Shown here: positions 10,089 through 42,239 of the stretch, piece after piece
How the letters are laid out: every line of letters begins with the position of its first letter
How positions within the stretch are numbered: position 1 is the first letter of the stretch
From: Hemileia vastatrix
Lineage: Eukaryota > Basidiomycota > Pucciniomycetes > Pucciniales > Zaghouaniaceae
Length of the DNA: 64,000 nt
Reading direction: 5' to 3'
Assembly: GCA_030280995.1 (NCBI GenBank)
Contig: JASXTE010000017.1
Coordinates: forward strand, 10,006,498-10,070,497
Position numbers and translations under genes: made by a program
The notes under the pieces: model-generated
The model's database searches: none
Told to the model about the DNA's origin: nothing
The model's input: the letters and a program-made list of their open reading frames with translations, nothing else

Positions 10089-10099
10089 TCAATCATGAT

Positions 10100-10690
10100 A
10101 CCACCAAAAAAATTCTTATTCCTTATTGGTAAGCAAACCACAGCCATTTGGTATAGTGTGGAGATGAGATTGGATAGTTGATTAAAGGGTTCTTCTTTTA
10201 CTCCATCAAATGAATGATTTTAGTAAATAAATTGAGGTTCAAAATTTTTATTGATTAAAGCCTTATCTTCATCTCCTCCTAATTTGGTTAGATATGGGAT
10301 ATCTTCAGGTGAATTCTTGGAATATTTATTTTTTTATAAACTTTAGTTTCATAATACTTGTTGTTTGATATGTGGTTGAATAAATTATCCAAGTGTATTT
10401 TTTTAATTATTTATTTTGATAGATCAATAATCATTTTTTATGTTTGAAGGTTTTGAAGAATATTGAAAAGAAGTAGAAATTGAAGATGATGATGATGAAG
10501 ATAATGATGAAGATAGATGTGTAAGGCTTCAATCAGAAGAAACAGATATTTTTTTTCTGAATTTCTTTTTAATGATTGGAATGAAGTAGATTTTGAAGAA
10601 GATGATATAGAAGATAAAGATGAAGATAGAGGTGTAAGGCCTGAATCCAAAAAAACAGACTTTTTTTTTCTGAAATTTTTTTTTACTTTT
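10100..10690 (-). pseudogene. Tet-like dioxygenase exon 1 remnant
   Basis: Minus-strand translation begins with a Ser-rich stretch (SLSSISSSSKSTSFQS, about 10620-10570) and continues in shifted frames to PEDIPYLTKLGG, NHSFDGVKEEPFNQLSNLI and LPIRNKNFFGGIMI. These match, in order, the exon 1 segments of the copy at 24783-25344 (LPEDIKYLTEFGDD, HSFDGVKDEAFNQLSDLI, GGIMIGFGW). There are several stops and frameshifts. The LTR of gypsy 1 begins immediately after GGIMI, so the retrotransposon inserted inside the gene. Divergence from the 24783 copy is much higher than between the two family-2 copies, so this is an older or different lineage. Confidence 0.65.
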
Positions 10691-10849
10691 CAAAAAAAAG
10701 GTCAAATAAATTAGTTAAAAATTTTAAAAAAAAAAACTCACATGATTTTAAATAAAAGACCTTAAAAATTTTCTAAAAAAAATTATTAAAAATTATTATT
10801 ACTTTACTTGAATTTGAGGAATTTTTTTTTGGATAATTCTGCACAAAAA

Positions 10850-11640
10850 AAAAAAAAGGAAAAAGGAAAAAGGAAAAAGGAAAAAGGAAAAAATAAAAAA
10901 TAAAAATGTTAAAAGATGTTGTAAAACTCTTCTGTCAAATTTTTAATGGCTGCCTCATTGGCTCTCTTTCACCCCTTGTAAAACCTCTTTAAAGCCCCCT
11001 CCAAACCTGATCCAAACCCCCCCCCAAAAAAAAAAATTTCCCTTTAGACCATCTTCAAACCCCCCAAAATGCCCCTCCAAACCACCACCAACCCCCCCTA
11101 TATCCTTCTCCTCAATTTTTAATGAATGATTATTAATAATTGTTTGGTACTAAATGATGAGAGGGGGTAAGGGAGCTTTGGAGTGGTAAAGGTGGGTTTT
11201 TGAGGGATTTATAGGGGGTTTTGGGGGGATTGAGGTTACCAAAGAGGGAGGAAAGGGGGGTCAGAGGCTCCAAGGAGGGAGGAAAGGGGAGTTATATGCA
11301 GCCTAGGAAGGAGGAAAGAGGGTCAGAGGTAGCCAAGGAGAAGAGAATGAGGCAGCCAAAGAGAAGGGAAAGGGGGAAAAGGGAGATATGTCCATGCCAA
11401 GGAGTGGTGAAAGTGGGGAAAATGGCCAGGCTAAGGAGGATAAAGAGGAGAATGGAGAGAAAAAAAAAGAGAGAAAAGAGGAAGAGAAAAAAAAAGTTAA
11501 TTCTACCTTGAAAATGAAAAACAAAACCACTTACCAGAAAAATGAGATAAAAAAAAAGAAAGAAAAAATAACAATTAGCAAATATAAAAATAAAAAGGAA
11601 AAAAAATGACTTACCTGGAGAGATGAGTTGAGAAAAAAAT
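10850..11640. repeat. C-rich to G-rich inverted repeat and simple repeats
   Basis: After a (GGAAAAA)n run (10857-10890) comes a C-rich half (10990-11100, runs of CCCCCC), an AT core around TTAATGAATGATTATTAATAA (about 11118), then a G-rich half (11160-11460). The same C-rich / AT core / G-rich layout occurs at 23430-24160 and, one-sided, at 31895-32260, each time near a transposase gene. ORFs here are low-complexity artefacts. The stretch ends with the leader donor ACTTACCTGGAGAGATGAG (minus-strand CAGGTAAGT) near 11612. Confidence 0.6.
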
Positions 11641-12150
11641 TACACTTCAAATTCTTTAACAGATGTTTGAGGAGAAGAGGAAAAGGATATGAGGTATGAA
11701 TGAAAAAAGAATGACTGAAAAATTATGCAATAGCTGAAAATATGTGATTTCATGTTGAGGTGGTGAGCAAAAACAAATGAGACAGGGAAAAAGAGACTTT
11801 CACTGAAAATTCAAAATAAAAGTCAATATGTGAAAATAAAATTACAAAAACCAAGAGAATAATACATGAAACTTGATCATTTGAAGAGTATGAAAAAAAA
11901 ATTAAAAGGGTTGTATTGAGAAAAGTTGGAGTATTACTGGCATAATAATGGAGGATATCCCAGTGGGAAGTAAGATTTGTGAATTAAAAGAAGGTATTAA
12001 TATGAGATAAAAATGAAATGAATTTTGTAATAATTTAATATAAAATTACTAAATCCCACAACAGCCTAGTGTGATTTGAAGAATTTTTGCCAATATGCTA
12101 GTTGTTTGAGAAATAGAAGTGTTGGATATATTGGGAGGTGTTTAAACTTC

Positions 12151-13576
12151 TTAATCTTCATACAACTCTAACCATTGATCTTTGAGGTCATCAAGTAGGT
12201 TATGAAGTATAGTGCAACACAGAATCCAGTTGATCACTTCCTCCATTTTGGATATATTTCTAATACAAGTTCTTAATTCCCTTAAACTGGAGAAAAGACC
12301 TTTCAAAATTCCAATAAAATGTTCAATACAGACTCTTGACTTTGCCAAATGATTGTTGAAATTGGCATTTTGACTGTCTTCAGATGCTGCTCCCCAAAAA
12401 TCAGGAAAGATATACTTTTTATTCACATAAGAAGAATCTTCTAGAAGATACTGATTTCCATCAAAGAACTTATCAGGTTCTTTTAAAATTTTCATTCTTT
12501 GAAAAAAATAGGAATCATGATATGATCCGGGATAGCCAGAAAAGAAAGATATAAATATTTTGTTGATGTCACTTATAAGCTGAAAGGAAATTGAATATTT
12601 ATAGAGAAGATATAGTTGCTTGTTTTATTATGAATGAAAAAGAAAGAATGGAATTAAAAATAAGCTACCTCTTTTTTAGTTCAAAGTAATTCACTATGCA
12701 ATATAGGGGGTGGACTTGCTAGCAAGTCCTCAACCTGAACTGAGATGGAACTCAGATGGAACTCAGACTGAACTCATACTGAACCCAAACTGAACTCTAC
12801 TTGAACACCCACCTAAAACTGTTCTGCTGAGTGTTTTTCATCCCTGATTGTATGGTTCCTTTATCAATTGCTCAATGTGTGTTCAATCTGTGGTGAGTTT
12901 GGGTCCAAGGTTGTTGACCTGCTAGCAAGTCCTCCCCCCATATTGTGTGGTGACTTTTTCCACCTTGATCAGGTTTCTGAATCAAAGGAATAGTAGTACC
13001 ATCAACAAAACTAATACATCCTGGGAACCCCTCTGCTTGCATAACCTGAGATAGTTCAAGGTGTTCTTCTTTAGTTTGTCAGAAAAGAAGTTCAGATTCC
13101 AAGTAGTTGATAGCAGTGATGCATTTTTTTGTATAAGTATTAACAAACCCATACCCTAAAGAAAAGACATTTTCCAAAAGTTTTAAGGCAGCTCCATGAC
13201 CATTGGAACCCAAACAACATGGTGTGATGGCCAATTGAATTGAATTATCACATTGAGGTTTTTGAGAGTTATTGTTAAAGACAGGGTGGTCCTGAATAAG
13301 CTCAAGCAATTTAAGGAAAAATCCCTGAGAAGTCCTGAGCAACTGTCTAAAACTGGGTACAAATAGGTTAAGAAGTTTTTGGATGGTGTACTTGGGGTTA
13401 TGAAGTACTTGAGGCTTTCTAGGAAGAAGGTAACATTTCCTTGCCACTTTTGATAAAAAAAGAAAATCTTCTTCAAGATCAAAATCAGAGTCACAATCTG
13501 AGTCCAAGAGGAGATCAAGAGCTATGAAAGTCATTTCTTGATGTAGCTTATCACAATTTGAGAGTTAGGAATGCAT
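12151..13576 (-). pseudogene. Harbinger-like DDE transposase, interrupted by a MITE
   Basis: HARBI1/DDE_Tnp_4-type transposase. The N-terminal part (13534-13079) has the acidic start (LLLDSDCDSDFDLEED), LPRKPQVLHNPKYTIQ and the helical segment SFRQLLRTSQGFFLKL. Then come the first catalytic Asp in FVDGTTIPLIQKPDQ (about 13015-12975), the MITE 12692-12952, FELKKR, a short intron, the second Asp in YPGSYHDSYFF and the Glu in RVCIEHFIGILKG (about 12330). The C-terminus NWILCCTILHNLLDDLKDQW ends at 12151. A stop replaces a codon upstream of 13534, and a stop lies at 13079. It would cut at the TIRs together with the Myb/SANT partner (family knowledge). Not functional as read. Confidence 0.82.
12692..12952 (+). 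mobile_element. CACTA-ended MITE (261 bp) inside the transposase
   Basis: It begins CACTATGCAATATAGGGGG, followed by the internal palindrome GGACTTGCTAGCAAGTCC, and ends with the inverse form CCCCCCATATTGTGTGGTG. The interior has short repeats of GAACTCAGATG type. Flanks are ATT and ACT, a possible 3-bp duplication with one change. Removing the insert and one flank copy rejoins the host transposase in frame across the conserved GK-S-YF segment. Another full copy is at 60164-60413 and end fragments occur at 31861, 34161 and 48351. Confidence 0.8.
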
Positions 13577-19924: not shown

Positions 19925-21248
19925 CTATGTAAGCAGGACAGAGTGCTAACACAGCATCCAAGCGGTGTATTGACTCCTGAGGAAGATGTGGATGCTGTAT
20001 TAGGATTTCTGTATTGGATGTTGGCTTATTTCGACTGTCAGCAAATCAGCCATTTCTTTGTTGCCTGTGTTGCCATGGTACTTTTGGTGTAAGAGATTCT
20101 TTCCATGCTGTCTAAATAAATGTAGTGTCCAATGATCATCCTCATTTAATCCTACCCACTACTTTGGCGGTCGTTGTGCACTCAAAAATCCACAGCATTC
20201 TCATCCTTGCATTCGTAGGGAGCATGTAGACTGAAGATCGCCTGATTAGAGTCCAAGCACAGCCACATTCACTGTGAAATTGACAAGTCAATGGTCCAAT
20301 ATCCTCATGAGCAACTTAAATGTTTAAGTTGTTTCGCCATACAAACACTGCTAGGAATGACTAATAGGTCACTAAAGACATGAAAGACACAAAAATGACT
20401 TGGCACAGCCGGATGATCTTTAGCAACCTAATTACATAATAATAATAAAAGACAGAAAAAACGAGGTAAGCACGAGTATGACCGAAGATCATATTATCAT
20501 TAGAAGAAGAAAAAGCTGAATGGATTGTGTAGGTAAGTATGTACATAAGTGACAAAACAGAAAAAATATAAATGAAGTCTCCAAATGTAAGGAAGATCAA
20601 CTTTAACTGATAAACAATCATGTGTAATTTTTAGAATCTCCCCAATTCTTATTGATGAACAGAAGAACTAGATTTGGTACTTGTTGGAATCTTTCAACTT
20701 ATGAAACCATTCCATTTCCAAAACTCTATGTGTTGTAGAACATTTGAGATTTGTATTGAATAGCTTTAAGGTTCAGTTCGTCAAGAAGGAAACAGTGGAT
20801 ACTTTTGGAATATCCGATGATCTCGTGTTGAATGGTTGGGGAACACTTCTGTTTAGGTTGGGGTCGCCTTGGGTTGATAGGTTAAGTATAAAAAAGAGGA
20901 GGGGGAGGTAGGTATTCTTTTTTATTTAATCTGCAAGTTAAATCCAACTCATCCTTAGATAATCTGTTATTTGTGTAGCGATGTGTTAGGTCTCGACTAC
21001 GCCGCAGTATCACATTGTATATAAAGTAACACATGAGTTTATAAATTGATCATCGAAATTGAGAACAATATAAATTAAAACATCCACTTACCCGCCAACA
21101 AGATGTAGCACTTTTATTATTAGACAAAATAAGCTGGATAGCTTATTAATTGGAAATATGACTAAGAGCATCTACCTCTGTGTCGATAAATTAGTTCAGT
21201 ATGTATATTTTACTGCATTTTGATGAGAACCTTAACCCTTGTTTCATT
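19925..21248. promoter_or_regulatory. Upstream region of the lyase gene, otherwise no gene
   Basis: About 1.3 kb between the lyase start and the next TIR element. It is less AT-rich and less repetitive than its surroundings. A plus-strand 63-codon ORF (19901-20092) and a minus 86-codon ORF (20621-20361) have no recognisable domain. The lyase promoter must lie here, but I cannot identify a TATA box with confidence. Confidence 0.4.
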
Positions 21249-21333
21249 AGGGGGTATCAATGTTCAGGGATCCGCAATTAGGGATCAGGAATTTTTTTTC
21301 CCAGGATCAGACATTATTAATTGCGGAAGATTC

Positions 21334-21363
21334 TTATCCACTAGCCCCAGGGCTAGTGGATAA
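21334..21363. repeat. Subterminal palindrome of family 2
   Basis: Arms TTATCCACTAGCCC and GGGCTAGTGGATAA, 14 bp each, around CA. The same palindrome with 16-bp arms is at 39329-39362. Its conserved position 85 bp from the TIR end suggests a transposase or partner binding site. Confidence 0.85.
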
Positions 21364-21577
21364 AAAATCCACGATAATGCATTATCCCGCCTCTTATACC
21401 CCAATTTCCATTCCTAATTCCTGATCCCAAACTCATCTCATCCATGATGGATTTGCAAGAAAGTCACATGACTCATAATTGCTGATGCCATCCTTAAGTC
21501 TTTCCTCACTCTATGCTACTTAATTTTGGTGGTGAACACTTAAGTTTTTTTTCTATCTACACACCCCAACTGCACAT

Positions 21578-22888
21578 TTGGCGGTGAATTCCCACTTCCC
21601 TCATCACTTAACCCTTCCACCGGCAACAATGAAACACCTCTCTACTAGGAAGCTACTTCACTCAACAATGAATGCTATTACTTTTCTTTTAGTTCTTTAC
21701 TATAAATCTGACTCTGATTTGGAAGATGCTTTAGCTTATATGTGTTTTCTTTCCAAAAAGCATTACATCATCACCAGGGGGCCAAATCTTTATCATGATC
21801 CCCGATATGATCTGGCCTCCATCCTCAACATTCCTCATTAAACTTCACACAACTTTTTAGAACTTCTCCCGATTCTTTCTTCAAACTTTATCAACTCATC
21901 TCCAATCATCCTATCTTCCATAACAATTCTCATAAAAAACAGCGTAATCCTGCCATCCAACTTGCTGTTGCTCTATGTCGCTTTGGCTCAAATGGAAATG
22001 GTGCTGCCGTAAGACGTTTGGATAATCTCTTTAACATATGATATGGTACTGTGATATTATACACCAAGCGCTGTATGATTACTATCCTTTCCCTCAAGTC
22101 TCAAACTCTTGCTTGGCCAACTCCAGAACAGCGACTTGAATCCTCTCAAGTAATGCAAGCTGAAGGTTTCCCTGGCTGTATAGGTTTTGTTGATGGCACA
22201 ACCATCCCTTTGAGTCAAAAGCCTGCTCATGATGGCAACCATTATTTTGATTGCAAAAAAAGGTTTCTTCAAAATCTCCTCCAAGTTCTCATCTTTCACA
22301 ATCTAACTTTTTATCTTCTTTCTAGATACTCTATTGCCATTCAACTTGTATGCGATGTCAATAAAAAATTTATTGCATTTTCACAGTGGCTGCCCTGGAT
22401 CATGTCATGACTCTTCCGTCTTCCAAAGAATGAGGATTTCTCAATCCCCTGACTCATACTTTGACGAATCTCAGTACCTCCTTGCAGACTCAGCATATGC
22501 AAGTGGAAAGTACATTATACCTGCTTTCCGTGGTGCAAATTCAGAAAATGACCCCAAAACTAAATTTAATTATCACCTTGCACAATCAAGAGTACGAATT
22601 GAACATGCTATAGGTATTTTAAAGGGACAATTTTCTAGTCTTCGGAAGCTCAGAATCCAATTTCAAAAAAAATTGGAGATCAAAACTGCAAATCATTGGA
22701 TCTTGACTTGCGTAATACTCCACAATATTCTAGCTGATTTAAAGGATGAGTGGAATGATCTTTATGAAGAAGAGGATCCTGAACCACCACTGGCACTCCC
22801 CTCCCTTGATTCACAAATCATTCAATCAACCGGCATACGCCCCATTATAATGCCAATTACTCTCCAACATTTCTCTTCACCCTTTTAA
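21578..22888 (+). pseudogene. Family-2 DDE transposase, copy 1
   Basis: HARBI1/DDE_Tnp_4-type transposase. It has the acidic N-terminal segment (YKSDSDLEDALAYMCFLSKK), DPRYDLASILNIPH, NFTQLFRTSPDSFFKL, the first catalytic Asp in FVDGTTIPLSQKP (about 22190), the second in GCPGSCHDSSVFQ (about 22405) and the Glu in RVRIEHAIGILKGQF (about 22605). The C-terminus LYEEEDPEPPLALPS ends at 22888. Interruptions are a stop at 21839, a TGA at 22039, a probable intron or damage around 22265-22325 and a +1 shift at about 22380. The first stop is also present (as TGA) in copy 2, so it predates their separation or marks an unrecognised intron. All three catalytic residues are still visible. Confidence 0.85.
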
Positions 22889-22899
22889 TTTTTAATTTT

Positions 22900-23200
22900 T
22901 ATGTTTTCATACTTTCCAAATGTCCTCTTTGTGTACTTTAATCACTTGGTTTTGTATTTTGGTTTGTTGCATATTCATTTTTTTTTTGAATTTACGGTGA
23001 ATATCTTTTTTTTGGATGGCTCATTGGTTTTCTTTCACTTCCTCAACATGAAATCGCATATTTTCTTATATCGCATATTTTGTCAGTGATTTTTTTTTTC
23101 ATTCATCACTCATATCCTTTTCATCCTCTCCTCAAACATCCCTCAAATATTTTGGTTGCATTTATTTTCTCAACTCAACTCACCAGGTAGGTCATTTTTT
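22900..23200 (+). promoter_or_regulatory. Conserved leader exon of the Tet-like gene
   Basis: The block from CTTTCCAAATGTCC to the splice donor CACCAG/GTAGGT (about 23190) recurs at 40268-40560 and 63060-63347, and inverted at 196-470. In the other copies it ends CTCTCCAG/GTAA. Strong conservation up to a donor site suggests a non-coding first exon. It sits between the transposase stop and the Tet-like ATG. Confidence 0.5.
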
Positions 23201-23234
23201 TTTTCATGGTTTTTTATTTGCTAATCATGATTTT

Positions 23235-23277
<43 letters not shown>

Positions 23278-23399
23278 GTTTTTTTTTGGTTTTTTTGTTT
23301 TTTTTGTAAGTGCTTCTATTATTTTTGTTCTAGGGTAAACTAATTTTTGTTTTGCTTTTTTCTCTTTTTTATCTTTTTATTTTTTTTGTTTTTTTTTCT

Positions 23400-24165
23400 C
23401 TCCTTCACCTCTCTTTATGATCCTCAAGGCCCCCCTTTTTCCCTCTCTTTACCTGTCTCTGACCCCCTTTTTACCCCCTTTTTAGCTGCCTCAAATCCCC
23501 CCTTTCCCCCCTCTTTAGGTCCCTCATCACCCCCTTTCCCCTCTTTTTAGGTGCTTCAATACACCCCCCTTCCCCTCTCTTTATGTCCCTCAAACCCCCC
23601 CTTCACCTCTCTTTTGGCACCTCAAACCCCCCCCTTCACCTCTCTTTACCCACATCAAACCCCCCCTTTCCCTCTCTTTAGGCGCCTCAAACACCCCCCC
23701 TTCCCCCCCTACCCAATTGTTATATCCTCCTCTACCCCCCCCACTGTTTATTAATGAACAATCGTTACAGATCGTTCGTTAACATGGAGGTGGGGGGGGG
23801 TGGGTGTAGAGAATGGGGAAAGGGTTTGGGAGGGGGTAAGGTGATTGGAAGGGGGGGGGGGGGTTTGAGGTGCCTAAGGAGAGGGGAATGGGGGGGGGTT
23901 TGAGGCACCTAAGGAGAGGGGAATGGGGGGGGGGTTTGAGGCGCCTAAGGTGAGGGGAATGGGGGGGGGGGGGTTGAGGCACCTAAGGTGAGGGGAATGG
24001 GGGGGGGTTTGAGGCAGCTAAAGAGGGGAGAATGGGGGGGGTTTGAGGCAGCTAATGAGGGGGGAAGGAGGGTGATGAGGGACCTAAAGAGGGGGGAAAG
24101 GGGGGTATTTCAGGGGGATTTTGAGGCAGGCAAGGAGAGCATTTGAGGGGGAAAAGGGGACTTTA
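23400..24165. repeat. C-rich to G-rich minisatellite inverted repeat
   Basis: The left half has units like CCCCTCTCTTTAGGTGCCTCAA. The right half has the inverse units (GGTTTGAGGCACCTAAGGAG...), roughly 35 to 40 bp each, with runs of 7 to 13 G. The centre near 23740-23785 is AT-rich with 'aatgaacaatcgttacagatcgttcgttaac'-type palindromes (motif AACGATTGTTC). The array lies in what would be the leader intron of the Tet-like gene. G-runs of this kind can form quadruplexes. Confidence 0.8.
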
Positions 24166-24782
24166 ATGGGAGATAAAGATGGGTTACCAACTTTCAAATA
24201 AAGATACTAACAAATTTTTGTTTGTAATTTTGATTATTTTTTTTATTTTTTTTGCAGTAATATAGAAAAAAAAAAATTCTTTCTGATAAGGACTGTCCCT
24301 CTTATTTACAAAACAAAAAAGGTTTATAATTTTATTTTTATTTTTTCTATAATTAATTTTTGTGATTTTGATTTTAATTAAATAATTTTTTTATTTTTTA
24401 TTTTGATTTTACTGATTATTTTTTTTTTTTCATGATCTTGTGAGAAGGTTTTTAATAACCAATCTTCAGGTTCACTTTTAATTTTTTTTTTAAATTTTTT
24501 TTTTGTGTTTTAATTCTTACTGAAATTTTCTTTTTTGAATGAATTTAATTATTAATTTTTTTTAATAGGATTTTGCTTTGATTGTGTTTTTTAAAATAAA
24601 ACCTCAGGTTTTTTTTTTATAAATTTTTTTTTGGAAAATTTTTTACTTATTTTTTGGTTTTTTTTTCAATTTTATTTTTAAAATAAAAAAACAGCTTTTT
24701 TTATTATTAGGTAGGAATTTTTTTTAAAAAAAATTTGAGTTAAAATTTTATTGACAATTAATTTTTTTTTCAGATCAAAAAA
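24166..24782. other. T-rich intron-like stretch before the Tet-like ATG
   Basis: Extremely T-rich sequence without a gene. It ends TTTTTTTTCAG directly before ATCAAAAAAATG, which fits a 3' splice acceptor for a leader intron. Confidence 0.5.
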
Positions 24783-26032
24783 ATGTCTTCTTCTTCTGAT
24801 TCACCCCTTACTTCTCTCTTATCTTCATCTTTATCTTCTTTATCATCTTCATCTTTATCATCTCTATCATCTTCTTTGAAATCAACTCTATCATCTTCTT
24901 TGAAATCAACTTCCATACAATCATCTTCTAAATCATCAAAAAAAATTAAAGATAATCAGTCTCATCAGAAGAAAAGATATTTAAAAAAAAAGTCTCTCTG
25001 CGAAAGTTATTTTCGTCATATCCCAAACATTTTTTTTTATAAAACTAAAGTAGATAAAAAAAATCAATATCCAAAAAAATTACCAGAAGATATCAAATAT
25101 CTAACAGAATTTGGAGATGATCGAGTTGTTGCAGTTATCAGCAATGCTTTTAAGCCTCAATTCATTTTGGAAGTTCATTCATTCGATGGTGTAAAAGATG
25201 AAGCTTTTAATCAACTATCGGATCTTATCATAACTCTTTATCAAATGGCTTTGGTTTGATTACCTATAAGGAATAAGAATTTGTTGGGTGGTATCATGAT
25301 TGGTTTTGGTTGGAGACCTGGTTTTGTCAAAGGATATTCTCTTGGTATGTCTAATAATTTTTGTTCCATTCTTAATATCATTTCACTTATTTCAATTATA
25401 TAGGTATATATTCATTTCTCAATAATATCACTAAAGCACAAAAAGATGAAGATTTTCGCTTATGGGACACTCTACCCTACTTTAATTCTTTTCTTGCTCT
25501 TCGACTCAAAAAGCTCTGTAATAAGGCATTTGAAAAAAATCATGAACTTGCAACCAAAGTTGGAATACCGAATTGGTGTGACTCCGAATGGGAAGATATC
25601 AGCCACGAATATCTTTTATTTTCTAATGTTATTATCACTCATTCTGGATTTCACAATAAAACTCACACTGATACCAATGACACCAATTTTCTTACTTTTG
25701 GTATATTCTCATATATCAAACCAATTACTGGCCAACCAATACCATCTCCAGCTAAAATCAAATGACATGGTTTATATTTTCCAGACCACCGGTGAATCAT
25801 TGATTTTGGTTTGGGAAACGGTATCATCAAAACTATTTGGAATTCTTCTAAGGATAATCATCAAACGACCAAAGCTCCTCCTGGTTTGAAATCCTGTCAA
25901 GATTTCACTCATTTCGGTTGCTCATTTCAAATCAGTCATAAGTTGATTCAAAGAATCAACAAGGTAAAAAAAGAAGGTAAAGTTAATCGATTTAAAAAAA
26001 CTTTATCTAGATCCAAAAAGTATGGGGATTAG
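24783..26032 (+). pseudogene. Tet-like 2OG-Fe(II) dioxygenase, copy 1
   Basis: Exon 1 (24783-25344) starts with a Ser-rich tail (about 50 residues), then a basic stretch and YFRHIPNIFFYKTK, LPEDIKYLTEFGDD, AFKPQFILEVHSFDGV, GGIMIGFGWRPGFVKGY. The intron is 25345-25403. Exon 2 (25404-26032) has FHNKTHTDTND with the metal-binding H-x-D, HGLYFPDHR, IDFGLGNGIIKTIW, the distal His in SSKDNHQTTK and FGCSFQIS near the C-terminus. This matches the Tet-like 2OG-Fe(II) oxygenases common in rust and other basidiomycete genomes, relatives of TET/JBP enzymes that oxidise 5-methylcytosine. In-frame stops at 25257, about 25762 and about 25794 make this copy inactive. The usual 2OG-binding Arg near FGCSFQ is not evident (His there). 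It lies tandem to the transposase and convergent with the Myb/SANT gene. Assignment is by motif recognition only. Confidence 0.65.
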
Positions 26033-26330
26033 AGTTGTCATAGAAAATTTTATATTTTTTCATAAATTTTTAATAAATTTTTTTTATATATCAATTTTCT
26101 CAAGTAAAGTGATGAGCTAACGACCTTTGGTTGTATAACAGGTAAGCATGATAACATTTATTTGTTTCATGGGGTTCCTCTAGCCTATACCTGTGGAAAG
26201 TCCCAAACTTTTGTTTCTAGATTTGATCTGCATTTTGGCTTGAGGAATTTTCATTACTTTAAACTAGGGAAATTGATATATATTAGATATTTATTTAATA
26301 ATTTATGTAATTATATTAAATTTAGATGAC

Positions 26331-26712
26331 TTCCACCCCTTACTTCAATAAAATGCAGGGGGGGGGTATTGCCAAATTTTCAAATCTGACATGTGAAATT
26401 GACGACTTAGAAAAATTTTGGTGATACCCACCCCTTGCTTCAACAAAATGCAGGGGAGAGTATTGCCAATTTTTTAAAACAGATATAGAATTTTTTTGAC
26501 TTGTAAATATTTTGGTGATACCCGTCCCTTACTTCAATAAAATCCAGGGGGGGTTTTACCAAAATTTCTTATAAGACTTGTGAAACTCTTGACATGTAAG
26601 AATTTTGGGGATACTGGTAAAATGCAGGGGTAGTAAAGCCAAAGTTTCATATAAGACTTTCAAGAATCATGACATGAAAGAATTTTGGTGATACCCACCC
26701 CTTACTTCATGA
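26331..26712. repeat. Hairpin minisatellite between convergent genes, copy 1
   Basis: Four degenerate units of about 95 bp. Each is built around CCCCTTACTTCAATAAAATG followed by CAGGGG, so each can pair CCCCT with AGGGG. They are followed by AT-rich text containing GACATGTGAAATTGA-like segments. It lies exactly between the 3' ends of the Tet-like and Myb/SANT genes. Confidence 0.8.
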
Positions 26713-26863
26713 AAATTTTATTTAAAAAAAGAATATTTAACATTAAAATACAAAAATTCAAGTAATGATTGATAGAGTAATGAAATACAGGAAATTATTG
26801 TAAATTTTATGTAAAAATAAATATGAAAAGTTGAAGTGTGAGAGAAATAAAACAAACTAGTCA

Positions 26864-28189
26864 TCAAAAAATTTCCTCAACAGATTTATTAGCTTTAACA
26901 CATTCTATCAAGAAATCTTTCTTTTTGGAATTTTCTTCATGATCAAACTTATATTTCATCTGCTCTAATAGGTTTTGATGTTTGAGTGTTTTCTCCTCTT
27001 TTTTTGATTTTTCAATACTTAGAGTTAACTTGAACTTCTTTTCTTTCAAATCTTGGGCCCAATCATCCTTCCGTAAAGAGAGCTTGTACTTCCTCTCATC
27101 CAAATCTTGTAACCTATCATCCCTCCTTAAAGAGAGATTGTATTTCTTCTTTTCAAAGCTTAGAGTCTCTTTAGTGATTTCCACTTGTTCTAGAGTGATA
27201 ATAAAAATTAATATAAAGTATAAGAAAAGCAGAGTAAAGTAATAAGAGGTATGATATCACTTACCAGCATCACGTTTCTCTAAAAATTGTTCCATAGACA
27301 AAAAAGGGGTTTGTGATGAAGTATCATATTTTCTTCTTCTTTGGGAGTGGAAATTTAGACTACTTGAAGCCCTACGCTTCTTGTTCAAGGTCATATTTTC
27401 CTCCTCATCATTGTCACTACCTTCAGACTCAGTTGATTGAGGATCCTGGGTTTGTTCGTCAGCCTTTTAAGAAATAAGAAAAAGATAAGTAAATAAAAAA
27501 ATAGAATTGATAAGATAAAAGAAAAAAGAAACAGACCTGAGTTAGATTTGGTTGGGTTAAATCACCAATAGGATCTACAGAAAATCTATCTAGATTTGTC
27601 TCATTCAAATGAGGGGAGGCTTGAGTGGAGGAAGAGGATGGAAAAAGATTTGCTTCAACATCATGTTTGGAGATATGATCTTCTCCATCCAACATGTTTA
27701 CAGGATTAAAATCGGCTTGCTCTCCAAAAATTACATCCATCTCTTTAAAGTAAGGAGATAAAGATTCAAGTTTATCATCTATGGATTTGATACCCTTAGT
27801 TATATCAATGTCGGTAACCCCAGAACCAGTGGAAGATGAAAGAGCCTTTGCCTTCTTGTATTTGGCTCGGTAATTCTTGAAGCATTCAGAAATCTGTTTA
27901 GGCAAAAGATCAATACTTCCCTTGGTCTTATTCCGTAATTCATTTGCCATTAGAAAATAGCAATTAGCTTTTTATGCTGGGGGCCATCCTACTTTAGTTG
28001 CATACTCAATACCAAAACAAGAATCATAGTTAGATTTGGTTTTCAGCTTGTTGATAAGTATGTGATGATCATCTTTTTTAATTGAAAAGTCTTAGATTTC
28101 TTGGCTGAGCGGGGGAAAGAGGGAGTAGTGGGATTTGAAGAACAACTGGGTGATGGCTGCCTTTGAGAAGATCTAGGACCACAAGGCAT
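26864..28189 (-). pseudogene. Myb/SANT-like DNA-binding protein, copy 1
   Basis: Minus-strand homologue of the open gene at 44395-43001. It has the start MPCGPRSSQRQPSPS (28189), a lost base in an A-run near 28080 that shifts the frame, a stop in the GRPP-TSK segment and then MANELRNKTKGSIDLLPKQISE (27950 onward). An intron and exon 2 (about 27475-27265) follow, and the coiled-coil exon ends at 26864 (KKDFLIECVKANKSVEEIF). Fewer repeats of the KKYxLSLRKDD type are present than in copy 2. The helix-rich N-terminal domain resembles Myb/SANT-like partners of Harbinger transposases, which bind TIR-proximal sites and bring in the transposase (family knowledge). Confidence 0.7.
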
Positions 28190-28633
28190 GTTAAAATATA
28201 AATGAAGATGAAAAAGAGCAGAAACAAGCAGATGAGATAGAGAGATGAAAAGGAGCAGAAATAAGCATATGAGATAGCGAGATGAAAAGGAGAAGAAACA
28301 AGCAGATGAGATGGTGAGGGGTTCTGAGCGGATAGAATGAACAGGATGGGATGAGAATGGGAGTGCACAGCAAGGTAGAAGGCATATCCAGAGAGTAGTC
28401 CAAGATGTGGTTATGGAAGAATGTAGGTTAAGATGTGGTTATGACAGAAAGTTGTACAAGATGTGGTTATGAAAAATTGAGTAAAAAATGTCGGATAAGA
28501 GGTGAACATTGACACGTAAAGTGTCTAATAACCCAATTATTAGCAAAAATAATTGCGGAAGATAATTGGGGTATGCAGATTATTTTCTGCAATTAATTTA
28601 ATTGCGGATTGGTCAACATTGATACCCCCTATT

Positions 28634-29060: not shown

Positions 29061-29079
29061 AGGGGGTGTCAGTTCTGGC

Positions 29080-29108
29080 AAATCCGCACTTAAATTAAGT
29101 GCGGATTT
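29080..29108. repeat. Family-1 subterminal palindrome
   Basis: Arms AAATCCGCACTTAA and TTAAGTGCGGATTT around one A. The same palindrome occurs near 870-900 and 62893-62921, and in reduced form near 32945-33010. It sits just inside the TIR, where Harbinger Myb proteins usually bind. Confidence 0.85.
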
Positions 29109-29431
29109 CAAACCAAATCAGCACTTACAAATCAGCACTTAAATTTTGCAAAAAAGTCACTTATTTCAAAAAAGGGTGTCAGTTATGACCTCAAATCAGC
29201 ACTTTTTTCCCGTTTTTTTTCACAACCACATTTTGGCCACAAAACATCCCTTCCTTTCTTACCCCATCCCTGTCACATGTGACACACTGACCTTCCTCGC
29301 TACCTACCCATCAATCCTCGGCACACACCCCTTCCTGACATTTTCAATATTTTGACCAGGCATGTTTACATTCTTTTTTACTTATTTCTTCTACCTCTTA
29401 ATCTTTTTTCTTGTTATGTGCCAGTTTCATA

Positions 29432-30746
29432 ATGCCTCCCAGACATTCCAAATCTCAAAAGGTAACTCAAAAATCTGCTTCATCACAAAAGTCTCCTCGT
29501 AAAGCAAGCCCTACACCTGAAAAATCAAAGGCAGGTTCAGGTCAGCTTAAAAAGGATGATTATCTCATCATAATCAACTTCCTTAAAATAAAATCAAATT
29601 TTGAAGCATGTTTTGGATGTGAAAAGTCCACTCGTATTGGACGTTCACCTTCTTCAAAGGTTAATGGCTACTTGTTGATGGCCAATGAAGTAAGGAAGAA
29701 AACAAGGGGGAGAATCGATATCAATCCTAAACAAATGAAGGAGAGATTTAAGAGTTACCATTCAAAATATAAAAAGACTCATCATGCTGTAAATGAAACT
29801 GGCTTTGGTATTGACAATGATGATTTGGAGATTGGAATTACTACTGTTTCCGAAAAGCTCAATGTCATGTGTCCTTTCTATGAGGAAATGGATAATCTTT
29901 TTGGCACCCGAGTTGATGTAAACCCTTGGTTTCTACACAATACTACTAAGCATATACCCTCTGGATCCAAACCTTCCTATAATCCTCCCAACACACCTTT
30001 ACTTGAAGAAGATCAATCCCCTCCACCTTCTAACCATAGTTCAGCTGAAGATGATCCCAACTATCAAGCAGAACAATTATATCGCAGAAGATCTGAATCC
30101 TCAGAGGCCCAAAATTTAAATGTATGTTTACTTTTTGTTTTTTCTTCAATTCTTCTCTGAATTTCTCTTTCTTTCTAGTCTCCTCCTACTCAAACTCAAT
30201 CTCCATTAAATAATCTCAATTCTGGAAATGTGAATACCTCTTTAGAAGCTGCTTTAGAAGAACTTCCTGAAGCCTCTTGTTCAAACTCCAAACTAAAGCG
30301 TCGAGCCTCAACTTCAATGAACTTGAACCATCTATTAAAATGTGGTAATACTTCAACAAGCTCATTTGGCTCCCTTGAGGATTATTTTGAAAAAAAAGAT
30401 ATAAGTAAGTTTTGTTTACTATATATCTTAATCATTAACTCATTTATTTATTTATTTCAATTTAATTTTCTCAGCGAAATCAACTATTGCAAATAATGCC
30501 CTTGACTTTGAGAAGATGAAGTTTGATCATATGCTAAGGAAAGATCAGCAAGCCTTAGATTTGGAAGAAAAAAAATTTGAGGTAGAGCAGATGGAAAGAG
30601 TAAATGACCGTCAATTTCAAAGAGAAATGGCTACTTGTGAATTGGAAAAACAAGAGAGTTTTAAAAAAAAAGATTTCATTATGGAATGTGTTAAAAATGG
30701 CCAATCTTGTGAGGACATTAAAAAATTACTTGACCTTTTCAATTGA
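29432..30746 (+). CDS. Myb/SANT-like DNA-binding protein of family-1 element (intact)
   Basis: Three exons, 29432-30121, 30179-30404 and 30475-30746, joined through GT-AG introns in matching phases, give an uninterrupted protein of about 395 residues. The start MPPRHSKSQ is the first ATG and aligns with MPRHPRSSQ of the family-2 protein. Residues about 1-45 are Ser/Lys-rich. Residues 45-165 are a helix-rich Myb/SANT-like domain (KKDDYLIIINFLKIKSNF, KVNGYLLMANEVRKK, NPKQMKERFKSYHSKYKK). An acidic Pro/Ser linker follows. Exon 3 is a coiled coil (LDFEKMKFDHMLRKDQQ, LEEKKFEVEQ) ending FKKKDFIMECVKNGQS. It should bind subterminal sites and recruit the transposase (inference from Harbinger partners). 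It is the only complete three-exon Myb/SANT gene of family 1 here. Confidence 0.75.
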
Positions 30747-30896
30747 TAAATTGTTTTTCTAGTTAATTTAATTTTGGTAATATTTTCTTATATGCTGACT
30801 TATAAAAGGAAAAGAATATAGTACGTTATTTTTGACAAAAATTTGAATGTATAATAAAAATTTTCTATCTTTACTTTCTAGTCAATAAGTTTGCTT

Positions 30897-31205
30897 ATCT
30901 AAATTTTTCTAAGTCATCAATTTCACATGTCAGATTTAAAAAATTGGCAATGCCCTCCCCTGCATTTTATTGAAACAAGGGGTGGGTACCACCAAATTTT
31001 TCTAAGTCATCAATTTCACATGTCAGATTTAAAAAATTGGCAATACCCTCCCCTGCATTTTATTGAAGTAAAGGGTGAAAGTCATCAAAATACAATATAA
31101 TTACATAAATTAATTAATATATAAATAAGATATGTCAAGTATACTACTTTTAAAGTAATGACAATTCCTTAAGCCAAAATGCAGATCAAGTCTAGAAACT
31201 AGGTT
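30897..31205 (-). repeat. Hairpin minisatellite and Tet 3'-tail remnant
   Basis: Two units of the CCCCTGCATTTTATTGAA-type hairpin repeat (30955-31080), inverted relative to family 2. The minus-strand block 31205-31150 (TTGATCTGCATTTTGGCTT) matches the conserved tail downstream of the Tet-like genes at 26220-26260 and 42340-42380. The dioxygenase itself has been replaced by the repeat beginning near 31206. Confidence 0.65.
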
Positions 31206-31206
31206 C

Positions 31207-31860
31207 AATGCAAAGTATTTTTTGAAGCAACTTATTTAAATAATACTTTATTAAATTAAGTTGATCAATAAAGATTGATTGACAATATTGCAATTCTTAA
31301 ATACAATAATTTTATTAAAAAATTTCAGATTACATATAAAAAAAATCAGTGACTTTTTCTATTACTTACAACTGTTTTTACAGAATTGAAAACTATGTTT
31401 CAGCTAATATTTTATGGAAGTGAACTCTGTTCTTCGCCCGAAGAACAGAGTTCATCCTCCTATTTTCACACTCTGTTTAAAAAGAATAAAATGACTTACC
31501 TGGAGAGATGAGTTGAGAAAAAAGAAATATAAGTGAATGGAAGTGAACTCTGTTCTTCGCCCGAAGAACAGAGTTCATCCTCCTATTTTCACACTCTGTT
31601 TAAAAAGAATAAAATGACTTACCTGGAGAGATGAGTTGAGAAAAAAGAAATATAAGTGAATGGAAGTGAACTCTGTTCTTTGCCCAAAGAACAGAGTTCA
31701 TCCTCCTATTTTCACACTCTGTTTGCACCAATCTCCATCCCTTTCAATTCTATCAACACATGCTTGTCTTCCCTCCCCATGCCTTTCGCTATCCTCCCAG
31801 CCCCATTGTATGCCATCCTCTTTTGACCCCCATTTCACCCCTCTCAACCTCTTGGCGGCC
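31207..31860 (+). repeat. Left arm of a split inverted repeat with tandem palindromes
   Basis: Contains three 123-bp tandem units, each with a perfect 32-bp palindrome (31422-31453, 31545-31576, 31668-31699). The arms are GAACTCTGTTCTTCG and its inverse. The sequences outside the palindromes (31207-31430 and 31700-31860) recur inverted at 33600-34002. The ORFs in this block (31660-31926 and its partner at 33568-33820) are translations of the repeat and have no domain. Confidence 0.7.
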
Positions 31861-32260
31861 TTGCTAGCAAGTCCTCCCCCCATATTGCATGGTGTTAATG
31901 AACGATTAGCTGCAATCGTTCAATAACTTAACGATTCGTTAAAGAATTGTTAAGTGAAGGTTAAGGGGGGGTAGGAGGGATATGAGGGAGGATTTGGGGG
32001 AGTTTTGAGGGGGATAGGAGGGGGGTTTGGAGGGGGGGTTTGGAGGGGGGGTTAGAGGCGGGTTTGGTGGGGATTTGGAGGGAGGATTTGGTGGATTTGG
32101 TGGGGGGTGGAGTGGAATGAGGGGAAGATATGAGGAGACCAAGAAGGGGGAGAAAGGGAGAGATGAGACCAAAGAGGGAGAAAAGGGATGTTAGAGTGAG
32201 CCAAGGAGGGGTGAATGAGGCAGCCAAAGGGGGGAAAAGGGGGATGATTCCAAGGAGTTG
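31861..32260. repeat. MITE end fragment and G-rich tract
   Basis: 31861-31894 is the right end of the CACTA-type MITE (GCTAGCAAGTCC, CCCCCCATATTGCATGGTG). It is followed by an AT core with AACGATT palindromes (31895-31960) and a G-rich tract (31964-32245). Core plus G-rich arm resemble 23740-24160 and 11100-11460. Confidence 0.65.
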
Positions 32261-32261
32261 A

Positions 32262-32721
32262 TGGCAGTGATACATCGTTTGGTATAAGTGTTAACTGAAC
32301 CATACCCTAAATCAAAGACATTTTCTAAACGTTTCAAAGCGGCTCCATTACCATTTGAACCCAAACGGCATAGTGTGATGGCCAATTGAATTGAAGGATG
32401 TCGTTGTTCTTTTTGAGAATTATTGTGAAATATGGGATGATCCTGAATAAGCTCAAGCAATTTAAGGAAAAATTCCTGAGAAGTCCTGAACAGCTGTCTA
32501 AAACTGGGTGTAGATAGGTTAAGAAGTGTTTGGATGGTGTACTTGGGGGTATGAAGTACTTGAGGCTTTCTGGGAAGAAGGTAACGTTTCCTGGCCATTT
32601 TTGATAAAACGACAAAATCTTCTTCTAGATCAGAATCGGAATCAGAGTCCAAGAGCAGTTCAAGCACCATGAAAGTCATTGCTTTATGTAATTTATCACG
32701 ATTTGAAAGTGAGGAAGGCAT
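32262..32721 (-). pseudogene. N-terminal half of family-1 transposase
   Basis: From MPSSLSNRDKLHKAMTF (32721) through LLLDSDSDSDLEEDFVVLSK, LPRKPQVLHTPKYTIQTLL and SFRQLFRTSQEFFLKLLELI to TYTKRCITAINSLES (about 32255). This is open and matches the decayed copy at 13534-13079 closely. The frame then runs into the G-rich tract, so all catalytic residues are missing. A truncated N-terminal fragment could act as a DNA-binding repressor if expressed (inference). Confidence 0.8.
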
Positions 32722-33032
32722 GACTCTTATATGATATGATATGAAGATGTAAGTGATGTACAATGTTTTGAGTTATGAAGTGTTATTCTGCGGAGTGCTG
32801 CGTATGAATGGGATGATGCTGACAAATCAGTGAAATGGGACTTGATGGTGAAATCAGCACTTTTGGTTGAGAAAGTGCGGATTTGAGTGAAATAAGTGAC
32901 TTATTTCATTTTGAAATCCACCAGTATTGGGGCTAGTGTGTTTTGGAAATCCGCACTTATTTAAGTGCGGATTTGGTCAAATTTAAGTGCGGATTTGTAA
33001 GTGCGGATTTGCCAGAACTGACACCCCCTATT

Positions 33033-38440: not shown

Positions 38441-38513
38441 AGGGGGTCTCAAAATTGATCAAATATTCCACATAAAAACGCCATAAAAAATTACCAAACA
38501 CCCCATCAGAAAA

Positions 38514-38570
38514 TGAAATACACCTGCCCTAGACAGGTGTATTTCACTAATGTGTTTGACCTCAAACACA
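38514..38570. repeat. Two adjacent subterminal hairpins of family 3
   Basis: 38514-38546 has 13-bp arms TGAAATACACCTG and the inverse. 38551-38570 has 9-bp arms TGTGTTTGA and the inverse around CC. Both are perfect. They lie 75 to 130 bp inside the TIR, like the palindromes of families 1 and 2. Confidence 0.85.
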
Positions 38571-38824
38571 CCTTCTTTTGGGAAGAAAAAGCCATAAAAA
38601 CACTTCTCTCCTTCATCTTGATTAGTCAGCACTAGGTACAGACAAGCCATCTCCTTAGATTCTTTTTCACCTAATTCTTAAGGGCTTATTATTCAACATG
38701 TGAAAAACGTGACTTCCCACCACTTAAGCAGCCACTTCATCATACACTCACCCTTAGTCTTCATCACCATTCACTAAAATTCCTCTTTCAGTCCATTGTA
38801 AACTAGAAATAACTGCTACCACTC

Positions 38825-39242
38825 TAGCCCTGGATCTATTGGTTAACTCAGATACCAACTCCAATGCTGAAATTAACTTGACTTACATGTGTGACATGCT
38901 GAATAATCACTATTTATATTCCAGAACACTTTCCATACAACACCAACCACAATTTAACCTTAATTTTCTTTAAAGCATTCCTGATATTAGCTTTAAACAG
39001 ATATTTGGCACAACCCTTCCTGGATTTCTCAGTTGCTTGAACTGATAAAAGATCACTCAATTTTCAGAAATGATTCTTGTTGTCCATAAAGAGATCCTCC
39101 TATTCAAATCTGTGTTTCACTTTGTCATTTTAGTTCAAATTTAAAAGGTGGCACATTTACCCATCTTGAAGACCTCTTCCATATCAGAAATGGAAATAAA
39201 TATTTTGATTGTAAAAAAATGCTTTGAATCTCTCTTATATAC
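38825..39242 (+). pseudogene. Family-3 transposase N-terminal remnant
   Basis: The plus-strand translation LALDLLVNSDTNSNAEINL, ISFKQIFGTTLPGFLS, DPPIQICVSLC and HLEDLFHIRNGNKYFDCKK follows, segment by segment, the N-terminal half of the family-1 transposase (LELLLDSDSDSDLEED, SFRQLFRTSQEFFLKL, HPSIQLAITLC, RLENVFDLGYGSVNTYTKR). At least four stops or shifts. The family-2 element interrupts it three bases after the last recognisable codon. Confidence 0.6.
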
Positions 39243-39328
39243 ATTAGGGGGTATCAATGTTCAGGGATCCGCAATTAGGGATCAGGAATTTTTTTTCCCG
39301 GGATCAGACATTATTAATTGCGGAAGAT

Positions 39329-39362
39329 TCTTATCCACTAGCCCCAGGGCTAGTGGATAAGA
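39329..39362. repeat. Subterminal palindrome of family 2, copy 2
   Basis: Perfect 16-bp arms TCTTATCCACTAGCCC and the inverse around CA, the same place as 21334-21363 in copy 1. Confidence 0.88.
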
Positions 39363-39574
39363 AATCCACGATAATGCATTATCCCGCCTCTTATACCCCA
39401 ATTTCCATTCCTAATTCCTGATCCCAAACTCATCTCATCCATGATGGATTTTTAAGAAAGTCACATGACTTATAATTGCTGATGCCATCCTTAAGTATTT
39501 CCTCACTCTATGCTACTTAATTTTGGTGGTGAACACTTAAGTTTTTTTTCTATCTACACACCCCAACTGCACAT

Positions 39575-40257
39575 TTGGCGGTGAATTCCCACTTCCCTCA
39601 TCACATAACCCTTCCACCAGCAACAATGAAACACCTCTCTACTAGGAAGCTACTTCACTCAACAATGAATGCTATTACTTTTCTTTTAGTTCTTTACTAT
39701 AAATCTGACTCTGATTTGGAAGATGCTTTAGCTTATATGTGTTTTCTTTCCAAAAAGCGTTACATCATCACCAGGGGGCCAAATATTTATCATGATCCTC
39801 GATATGATCTGGCCTCCATTCTCAACATTCCTCATTGAAACTTCACACAACTTTTTAGAACTTCTCCCGATTCTTTCTTCAAACTTTATCAACTCATCTC
39901 CGATCATCCTATCTTCCATAACAATTCTCATAACAAACAGTGTAATCCTGCCATCCAACTTGCTGTTGCTCTATGTCGCTTTGGCTCAAATGGAAATGGT
40001 GCTGCCGTAAGACGTTTGGATAATCTCTTTAACATAGGATATGGTACCGTGATATTATACACCAAGCGCTGTATGATTGCTATCCTTTCCCTCAAATCTC
40101 AAACTCTTGCTTGGCCAACTCCAGAACAGCGACTTGAATCCTCTCAAGTAATGCAAGCTGAAGGTTTTCCTGGCTGTGTAGGTTTTGTTGATGGCACAAC
40201 CATCCCTTTGAGTCAAAAGCCTGCAATTACTCTCCAACATTTCTCTTCACCCTTTTA
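39575..40257 (+). pseudogene. Family-2 transposase with internal deletion, copy 2
   Basis: Nearly identical to 21578-22220 up to FVDGTTIPLSQKP, then joined directly to ITLQHFSSPF, the extreme C-terminus. The deletion removes about 630 bp holding the second catalytic Asp and the Glu. A stop follows NIPH as in copy 1. The second stop of copy 1 (22039) is a Gly codon here. Confidence 0.88.
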
Positions 40258-40267
40258 ATTTTTAATT

Positions 40268-41523
40268 TTTATGTTTTCATACTTTCCAAATGTCCTCTTT
40301 GTGTACTTTAATCACTTGGTTTTGTATTTTGGTTTGTTGCATATTCATTTTTTTTTTTTGAATTTACGGTGAATATCTCTTTTTTGGATGGCTCATTGGT
40401 TTTCTTTCACCAGCTCAACATGAAATCGCATATTTTCTGAAATTGCATATTTTGTCAGTGATTTTTTTTTTTCATTCATCCCTCATATCCTTTTCCTATT
40501 CTCCTCCAACATCCCTCAAACAATTTGGTTTCATTCATTTTGTCATCTCATCTCTCCAGGTAAGTCATTTTATTCTTTTTTTTTGATTTTTTGATTACTA
40601 ATTATAATTTTTTTTGTTTTTTTCTGTTTATTTTATTTTTTTTATCTAAATTTTTTTTGTAAGTGGTTATTTTGGATTTCAATGGTATAATTAACCTTTT
40701 TTTTCTCTCCCTCTTTACTTTCTTTTTTAGCTCCATCACCCTACTCTTCATCCCTCTTTGGCATTGTCATTATCCCCCCTTTCCCTTATTTCACTTTTTT
40801 TTGGCTCCATTTCATTGAAACACATACATTGCACATTCTTTATGCATTTCACTTACTCCATATTCAATTTCCCCACAATTCCAACATCAATCTTTCTCAC
40901 TCTATTTTTCCTACTTTTCAATCAAGGTAAGTTTCATCTCCTTTTTTTCATGCCTATATGATATCTCATTCCTTTTATGAAAACTTCATACTTAAATATA
41001 TGTATGACTCTTATCTGGATAACAGTGAACTTATAAAACTCCTTTTGATCTCATCTTCATTACCACTTTTCAAGTTTTTGTAAAATTTTGAAAATCAGAC
41101 TCGGAATTAGGGTTAGGTTTATTCAAATCTAATTTTCTTTTTACTGAAGATTCTCCTGAAGGCTACCTTTCATTTCCTGCAAACAGATTTGAATTTGATT
41201 CAGTGGTTGCTGAGATATTGACCATTAAAGTTGAGCCTTTTTTTTCCCAATTTAAATTTTTATTTCATTTTTTTATGTAACAAATTAGGGTTAGGTTTAT
41301 TTAAATCGCATGTCCTTTAACTGAAGATTCTACTAAAGCATATCTTTCATTTTCCACAAACAGGTTTGAATTAGGTTCGGTGGTTGCTGAGATTTTGACC
41401 TTTGAAGTTGAGCCTTTTTTCCAAATTTCACTTGTCTTATTTCACATTTTTATATTGCATATTTAGAGGATAAGGATTCTGAAACTCTTATATGATTATT
41501 ATCTAGGCATTTCAATTATATAG
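40268..41523 (+). promoter_or_regulatory. Leader exons of Tet-like gene, copy 2
   Basis: The block up to CTCTCCAG/GTAAGT (40560) and a second block ending CAATCAAG/GTAAGT (about 40927) are each conserved with 63060-63347 and 63720-63755. Both look like non-coding exons with consensus donors. The stretch to 41523 ends TTATATAG, the acceptor of Tet exon 2. Exon 1 coding sequence known from 24783 is missing here, so either transcription starts within this leader or the copy is 5'-truncated. Confidence 0.5.
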
Positions 41524-42152: not shown

Positions 42153-42239
42153 AGTTGTCATCGAAAATTTTATATTTTTCCATAAATTTTTAATAAATAT
42201 TTTTTATATATCAATTTTCTCAAATAATGTGATGAGCCA

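What the first reader, a model, noticed from the sequence alone, without database searches (positions are those of the whole stretch)
21249..28630. Harbinger-like DNA transposon carrying a Tet-like dioxygenase and a Myb/SANT partner
Clear TIRs and ATT duplications enclose a DDE transposase, a 2OG-Fe(II) dioxygenase with HxD and distal His, and a Myb/SANT-like gene. TET/JBP genes in basidiomycetes are known mainly from KDZ-type transposons; a Harbinger-like carrier would be a different association. A transposon-encoded 5-methylcytosine oxidase could counter host methylation of the element. Seen: gene order and motifs. Inferred: enzymatic role.
Basis: partly seen in the sequence, partly recalled or inferred. 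Interest (0 to 1): 0.93.

Follow-up and report, generated by a model that had tools for sequence, protein, structure and literature searches.

The report
Rust-fungus jumping gene carrying TET-like dioxygenase
This is a real cut-and-paste DNA transposon of a rust fungus that carries its own TET-like enzyme gene, a kind of enzyme that in animals helps remove DNA methylation marks; the pairing was published in 2025, but this family differs in its insertion footprint and comes with natural enzyme-less siblings.

Summary
21249-28630 is a PIF/Harbinger-superfamily transposon with TIRs AGGGGGTATCAATGTT, ATT duplications, a DDE_Tnp_4 transposase, a Tet-like 2OG-Fe(II) oxygenase (PF20515) and, on the other strand, a Myb/SANT-like gene (below the curated cut-off). 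This copy is dead. Elsewhere in the same 748-Mb genome one fetched copy (L034) has all three genes open; its spliced dioxygenase is 427 aa (PF20515, 2.6e-37). The novelty claim is overtaken: Kojima 2025 (PMC12730594) reports TET in 15 rust Harbinger families (PHISTA). Two differences remain: duplications are AAT or ATT, identical on both sides in 28 of 30 elements, where PHISTA is defined by TA; and the third gene is Myb/SANT-like (weak), where PHISTA third proteins are said to lack that domain. Between dioxygenase subfamilies dN/dS is about 0.1. A derived 5.5-kb form lacks dioxygenase exon 1 and half the transposase, yet multiplied recently (21 copies, 0.3-0.9% from consensus). CpG-to-TpG changes run 16 times the other C-to-T rate, pointing to methylation, but exon-1-bearing copies show no detectable sparing. 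Likely role: counter-silencing, acting in trans if at all; enzyme activity is inferred.

The parts
21246..21248 (.). left target-site duplication ATT
21249..21279 (+). left TIR of copy A (first 16 bases AGGGGGTATCAATGTT shared with the other end, imperfect beyond)
21524..22888 (+). transposase remains of copy A (DDE_Tnp_4), frame broken
23497..24105 (.). G/C-run inverted-repeat spacer between transposase and dioxygenase genes
   Evidence: 105-nt arms, 85% complementary
24783..25344 (+). dioxygenase exon 1 of copy A, with one in-frame stop
25345..25403 (+). 59-nt intron (GTATGT...ATAG), predicted
   Evidence: same intron in L034
25404..26032 (+). dioxygenase exon 2 of copy A (PF20515; HxD and distal His present), with two in-frame stops
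26864..28190 (-). Myb/SANT-like gene of copy A, interrupted
28600..28630 (-). right TIR of copy A
28631..28633 (.). right target-site duplication ATT
39246..44746 (+). copy B: 5.5-kb derivative, ATT duplications; transposase cut after residue 241, no dioxygenase exon 1 found, Myb-like frames present
41523..42152 (+). dioxygenase exon 2 of copy B, open frame (PF20515 1.4e-29)
43001..44395 (-). Myb/SANT-like gene of copy B (matches in 43682-44404, 43475-43678 and 43145-43471)
29061..33029 (+). element D: related family, TIR AGGGGGTGTCAG, ATT duplications; Myb-like gene and 5' transposase; no dioxygenase match at the thresholds used
10091..13480 (-). relic C: diverged transposase (45-51% identity) with dioxygenase exon 1 remains (67% identity over 81 aa, one stop) in the same order
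38441..47456 (.). older element with TIR AGGGGGTCTCAA and ATT duplications, holding nested copy B, a transposase fragment and a dioxygenase fragment at 45506-45820 (-)

Best explanation
A rust-fungus PIF/Harbinger-superfamily DNA transposon whose complete form carries three genes: a DDE transposase, a Tet-like 2OG-Fe(II) dioxygenase with one predicted intron, and on the opposite strand a Myb/SANT-like protein with a charged, repetitive tail (coiled coil by eye, not tested). The transposase, helped by the Myb-like protein as in other Harbingers, cuts and pastes the element into AWT sites (gene content and duplications shown; roles inferred from the family). The dioxygenase most likely oxidises 5-methylcytosine and eases silencing of the family. 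Because copies without dioxygenase exon 1 have multiplied recently, and exon-1-bearing copies are not visibly spared CpG decay, I think it acts in trans on the family, or on chromatin state rather than on mutation (inferred).
For: L034 with all genes open, AAT on both sides; PF13359 2.5e-26; spliced dioxygenase PF20515 2.6e-37 over profile 11-211 of 211; H, D, H triad in 45 of 47 exon-2 rows, 37 of 39 after dropping 8 rows that repeat a place. Constraint: dN/dS 0.06-0.14 in six comparisons of L034 exon 2 with other dioxygenase subfamilies, dS above 1. Among 11 exon-1-bearing copies 9 silent and 13 changing or stop events, p 0.04 against a neutral silent share of 22%. Methylation signature: CpG-to-TpG 0.031 against 0.0019 for other C-to-T per site and copy, 21 copies, changes seen in at most 2 copies. 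Myb_DNA-bind_4 in 6 of 7 relatives, best E 0.0016. Transposase in a rust-only clade of 12 among 41 chosen rows, 98/99.
Against: No activity, methylation or expression data. Both structure models failed (pLDDT 43.6 for the Myb-like protein, 34.6 for dioxygenase L038); no PDB sequence match for the dioxygenase. The Myb match is below the curated cut-off and absent for the spliced 418-aa protein at E up to 1. One young pair runs against constraint (L034-L041, 2 silent, 7 changing). 24 examined elements lack exon 1, 21 of them young 5.5-kb copies, so a complete enzyme is not needed in cis. CpG changes make up 13 of 42 changes in exon-1-bearing copies and 222 of 610 in the 5.5-kb form, Fisher p 0.51. 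Whether the host has a cytosine methyltransferase was not learned: that search did not complete.
Confidence: 0.55

Rival explanations
1. The dioxygenase is kept for another use: it modifies other DNA bases or RNA, or serves another step of transposition, not removal of methylation.
For: No activity shown. Exon-1-bearing copies are not spared CpG decay. PMC12730594 section 3.4 (read) itself keeps other activities open and names CMD1 as a relative with another reaction.
Against: The only Pfam family matched by the spliced protein at E up to 1 is the Tet-like one; the host shows a strong CpG mutation signature typical of 5mC.
Confidence: 0.25
2. The gene is a dying passenger: captured, still open in young copies, but no longer needed.
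For: The copy in the window is broken; 36 of the 150 scored exon-2 hits carry a stop (my count); the 5.5-kb form multiplied without exon 1.
Against: Strong constraint between subfamilies, dN/dS about 0.1; a diverged relic keeps the same gene order (relic C); exon 1 occurs at 13 places with one and the same score, 99% identical to the query.
Confidence: 0.15
3. It is simply a PHISTA element: the published TA duplication is the inner part of the AWTA...TAWT arrangement seen here, and the Myb-like protein is the published third protein.
For: Ends read ..AWTA|GGGGG and CCCCC|TAWT.., so a cut one base inward reads as TA; the transposase is sister to Puccinia ones at about 50% identity; same three-gene content.
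Against: The base beyond the TA agrees on both sides in 28 of 30 elements, which a true TA duplication would give only by chance; published third proteins are stated to lack Myb/SANT.
Confidence: 0.45

Closest known systems
PHISTA, TET+ Harbinger families of Puccinia and Austropuccinia (Kojima 2025, PMC12730594; abstract, sections 3.1, 3.4 and part 1 of 4 read, passages elsewhere)
   Same: rust host, Harbinger-superfamily transposase, TET/JBP gene inside the TIRs, a third gene
   Different: published TSD TA against AWT here; published third proteins without Myb/SANT against a Myb/SANT-like one here (weak)
Pangu group of PHIS transposons (Han 2015, PMC4482050; abstract and passages seen)
   Same: ANT duplications and TIRs starting AG or GG
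   Different: no dioxygenase mentioned in the passages seen; second ORF without known motif; average about 3.5 kb against 7.5 kb here; clade membership not tested
PIF/Harbinger and Nuwa groups (same paper, passages seen)
   Same: transposase plus Myb/SANT protein
   Different: duplications TWA, CWG or TNA, not AWT; two ORFs, no dioxygenase described
KDZ transposons with TET/JBP (as described in PMC12730594)
   Same: transposon-borne TET-like dioxygenase
   Different: unrelated transposase; 8-bp duplications stated for Zisupton and the rust Dileera family

Membership tests
PHIS (PIF/Harbinger) superfamily | DDE_Tnp_4-type transposase | tested here: met
   PF13359 2.5e-26 over the full profile
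PIF/Harbinger group proper | 3-bp TWA duplication | tested here: not met
   AAT or ATT, identical on both sides in 28 of 30 elements
PIF/Harbinger and Nuwa groups | second gene with Myb/SANT domain | tested here: inconclusive
   PF13837 in 6 of 7 relatives, best 0.0016, cut-off not reached; no match for the spliced protein
Pangu | ANT duplication, TIR starting AG or GG | tested here: met
Pangu | transposase in the Pangu clade | not tested
   no Pangu reference sequences at hand
PHISTA | TA dinucleotide duplication | tested here: not met
   duplication is AWT; an inward reading as TA is possible
PHISTA | transposase clusters with rust Harbingers | tested here: inconclusive
   rust-only clade, sister to P. 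striiformis and P. coronata rows, 100/99; which rows are PHISTA is not known to me
PHISTA | third protein without Myb/SANT | tested here: inconclusive
TET/JBP dioxygenases | Tet-like 2OG-Fe(II) domain | tested here: met
   PF20515 2.6e-37, profile 11-211 of 211
TET/JBP dioxygenases | HxD...H iron-binding triad | tested here: met
   45 of 47 exon-2 rows (37 of 39 distinct places); L031 and L032 have HxN
TET/JBP dioxygenases | basic residue binding 2-oxoglutarate | tested here: inconclusive
   no basic residue after the distal His is the same in all rows printed
TET/JBP dioxygenases | double-stranded beta-helix fold | tested here: inconclusive
   model pLDDT 34.6, fold not searched
TET/JBP dioxygenases | oxidation of 5-methylcytosine | not testable with these tools
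   needs an assay
KDZ transposons | KDZ transposase | tested here: not met
   the element's transposase is DDE_Tnp_4

The most novel reading that the evidence does not exclude
The dioxygenase is a shared, trans-acting anti-silencing factor: complete elements pay for it, while exon-1-less elements that keep the transposase (L030, L032) and transposase-less 5.5-kb elements ride on it, with the Myb-like protein steering transposase and dioxygenase to the common TIRs. One genome would then hold makers, natural enzyme knock-outs and parasites of the same element, in a lineage with AWT duplications that is distinct from PHISTA.
Probability: 0.27. Interest if true: 0.68.

Novelty: new variant of a known kind. 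Interest (0 to 1): 0.45.

Why it matters
PMC12730594 states that the function of transposon-borne fungal TET genes is not experimentally validated; whether they lift silencing, and in cis or in trans, is open. This genome offers complete, exon-1-less autonomous-looking and exon-1-less non-autonomous forms of one young family side by side, so methylation and expression can be compared between them without any manipulation. It also shows that the TA-duplication definition of the published lineage deserves checking against matched flanks.

Tried and rejected
Reading the duplication as TA: rejected, the next base agrees on both sides in 28 of 30 elements. The two misses: a 200-bp MITE (AAT/AGT), and L029, where my script took the wrong register because one end lacks a G; read by eye it is ATT/ATT.

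Cis protection from CpG decay: no difference. Small sample, 42 changes in 11 copies; changes were tallied per copy, so a shared change counts more than once; the 11 copies cover only the dioxygenase region, the 21 copies the whole element.

Selection within the 5.5-kb form (silent, changing, stop; expected from its noncoding changes in brackets): transposase relic 7, 37, 2 (10.1, 35.5, 2.3), p 0.37; Myb-like exon 1 17, 37, 4 (11.5, 38.8, 2.7), p 0.15; dioxygenase exon 2 10, 14, 1 (11.4, 33.8, 2.0), p 0.10. The last is biased: these copies were picked for protein similarity in that very exon. Myb-like exons 2 and 3 were not counted, because my script joined them out of frame.

Structure: both models too poor, so no fold search was run. 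Protein search with exon 2 scored none of 65 candidates; the tool's length limits may have hidden full-length relatives, so published PU-type enzymes were not compared. The PDB sequence search gave no dioxygenase match and one match at E 1.5 for the Myb-like profile. First-look numbers (15063, 13998, 8402, 10849 candidates) are not copy numbers. Of the 150 rows, 20 were fetched whole as the best hits besides copy B; L029, L030 and L032 came from places further down that list. PMC12210899 was seen in passages and not used.
Full report
What is there. The window is part of a 747.6-Mb genome in 791 contigs. By E-value the best database relatives of the transposase are rust-fungus proteins, 52% (Puccinia coronata), 51% (P. 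striiformis) and up to 47% (Austropuccinia psidii) identical, so the host is a rust, apparently not one of those species (inference). Copy B (39246-44746) is a 5.5-kb relative nested in an older element (38441-47456) with the same kind of ends.

Complete form. L034 (C42:32130100-32138000) has every gene open: transposase frame of 454 aa (PF13359 2.5e-26), dioxygenase exons giving 427 aa (PF20515 2.6e-37, profile positions 11-211 of 211), and a three-exon 418-aa Myb-like protein. L033 is similar, 0.68% different over 7,452 aligned bases, but has a stop in the third Myb-like exon. The iron-binding residues H, D and H are kept in 45 of 47 exon-2 rows; 8 rows repeat a place, so 37 of 39 places.

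Duplications. In 28 of 30 elements with both ends in hand the three bases outside AGGGGG...CCCCCT are the same on both sides, 18 ATT and 10 AAT. The 30 are 27 members of this family, elements D and 38441-47456, and one MITE. AWT fits the ANT rule given for Pangu and differs from TWA of PIF/Harbinger and TA of PHISTA.

Derived forms. Twenty copies chosen as ranks 2-21 of the 150 rows, that is for likeness to copy B's exon 2, gave no match to dioxygenase exon 1 nor to the transposase beyond residue 241. L030 and L032 also lack exon 1 but keep an open transposase; L029 lacks exon 1 and keeps the transposase in two frames. On the exon-2 tree the 32 exon-1-less rows (24 distinct elements, 8 rows repeating a place) form one clade, 98/98. 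So loss of exon 1 probably came before the transposase deletion (inference). The 21 aligned 5.5-kb-type copies (some with insertions, up to 6.4 kb) lie 0.33-0.85% from their majority sequence: a recent burst.

Selection. Against other dioxygenase subfamilies in the genome (L035-L040) exon 2 of L034 gives dN/dS 0.06-0.14, with dS of 1.1-2.3 and so rough. Within the family single pairs vary: L034 against L042, L043 and L044 together 8 silent and 0 changing, against L041 2 and 7. Among 11 exon-1-bearing copies (13 aligned, copies A and L031 left out) there are 9 silent and 13 changing or stop events where neutrality predicts 22% silent, p 0.04; with the two included, exon 2 has 19 silent and 29 changing or stop events, p 0.009, and exon 1 3 and 7, p 0.45. 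These copies were picked partly by exon-1 similarity, so exon 1 is biased; one of them, L051, has two stops in exon 2. In the 5.5-kb form the transposase relic shows no departure from neutrality (p 0.37).

Age of the association. Relic C (10091-13480) has a transposase 45-51% identical and dioxygenase exon 1 remains 67% identical in the same order. The pairing is therefore older than these families, or was made twice.

Mechanism. CpG-to-TpG changes are 16 times as frequent per site as other C-to-T changes, with no marked preference for TCG. This points to CpG methylation of these elements, the substrate a TET enzyme would need. But CpG changes make up 13 of 42 changes among exon-1-bearing copies and 222 of 610 in the 5.5-kb form, p 0.51: no sign that carrying the gene spares a copy. 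Together with the recent multiplication of exon-1-less copies this argues against a strictly cis-acting shield. Removal of methylation in trans, or a change of mark without repair, remains possible. Enzyme activity, methylation state and expression are not shown.

What is known. Kojima 2025 (PMC12730594; abstract, sections 3.1, 3.4 and part 1 of 4 read, passages elsewhere) describes TET genes in seven transposon lineages of rusts, including 15 Harbinger families from six species with TA duplications, and states that none of their third proteins contains Myb/SANT. My literature searches listed no other paper on a TET-bearing Harbinger; they cover open-licence papers only and the listed papers besides this one were not read for it. 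The Myb/SANT assignment here is itself weak (PF13837, 6 of 7 relatives, best E 0.0016; none for the spliced protein), so this second difference may be one of detection.

Verdict. A true TET-bearing Harbinger with at least one fully open copy in the genome, a variant of a published kind. The distinctive points are the AWT duplications and the natural series of complete, exon-1-less and non-autonomous forms.

Noticed in passing
window 50206-50405: 200-bp MITE with the same first 12 TIR bases (AGGGGGTATCAA) and flanks AAT/AGT.
   Followed up: partly
L035-L038, L040: A second dioxygenase subfamily (exon 2 about 80% identical to this one) in which the intron seems to stay in frame; the genome table shows single frames of 393 aa and more.
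   Followed up: partly
G000 genome: All 150 scored PF20515 places are above the family cut-off, from 10849 first-look candidates: a very large set of Tet-like sequences in one fungus.
   Followed up: partly
dioxygenase exon 1 across the genome: Open frames of 246, 277, 308 and 339 aa, in steps of 31 aa: probably a serine-rich N-terminal repeat that varies in copy number.
   Followed up: no
window 3337-9236 and 34152-37809: Two retroelement-like regions (RNase H and reverse transcriptase matches), frames interrupted; Gypsy type by my reading.
   Followed up: partly
window 17515-18333 (-) and 53197-53925 (+): Host-like genes: heparinase II/III-like C-terminal domain and an adaptor-complex medium subunit.
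   Followed up: partly
window 61699-62352: Long low-complexity repeat open in several frames (Lys-Asn repeat in one), not evidence of a gene.
   Followed up: no
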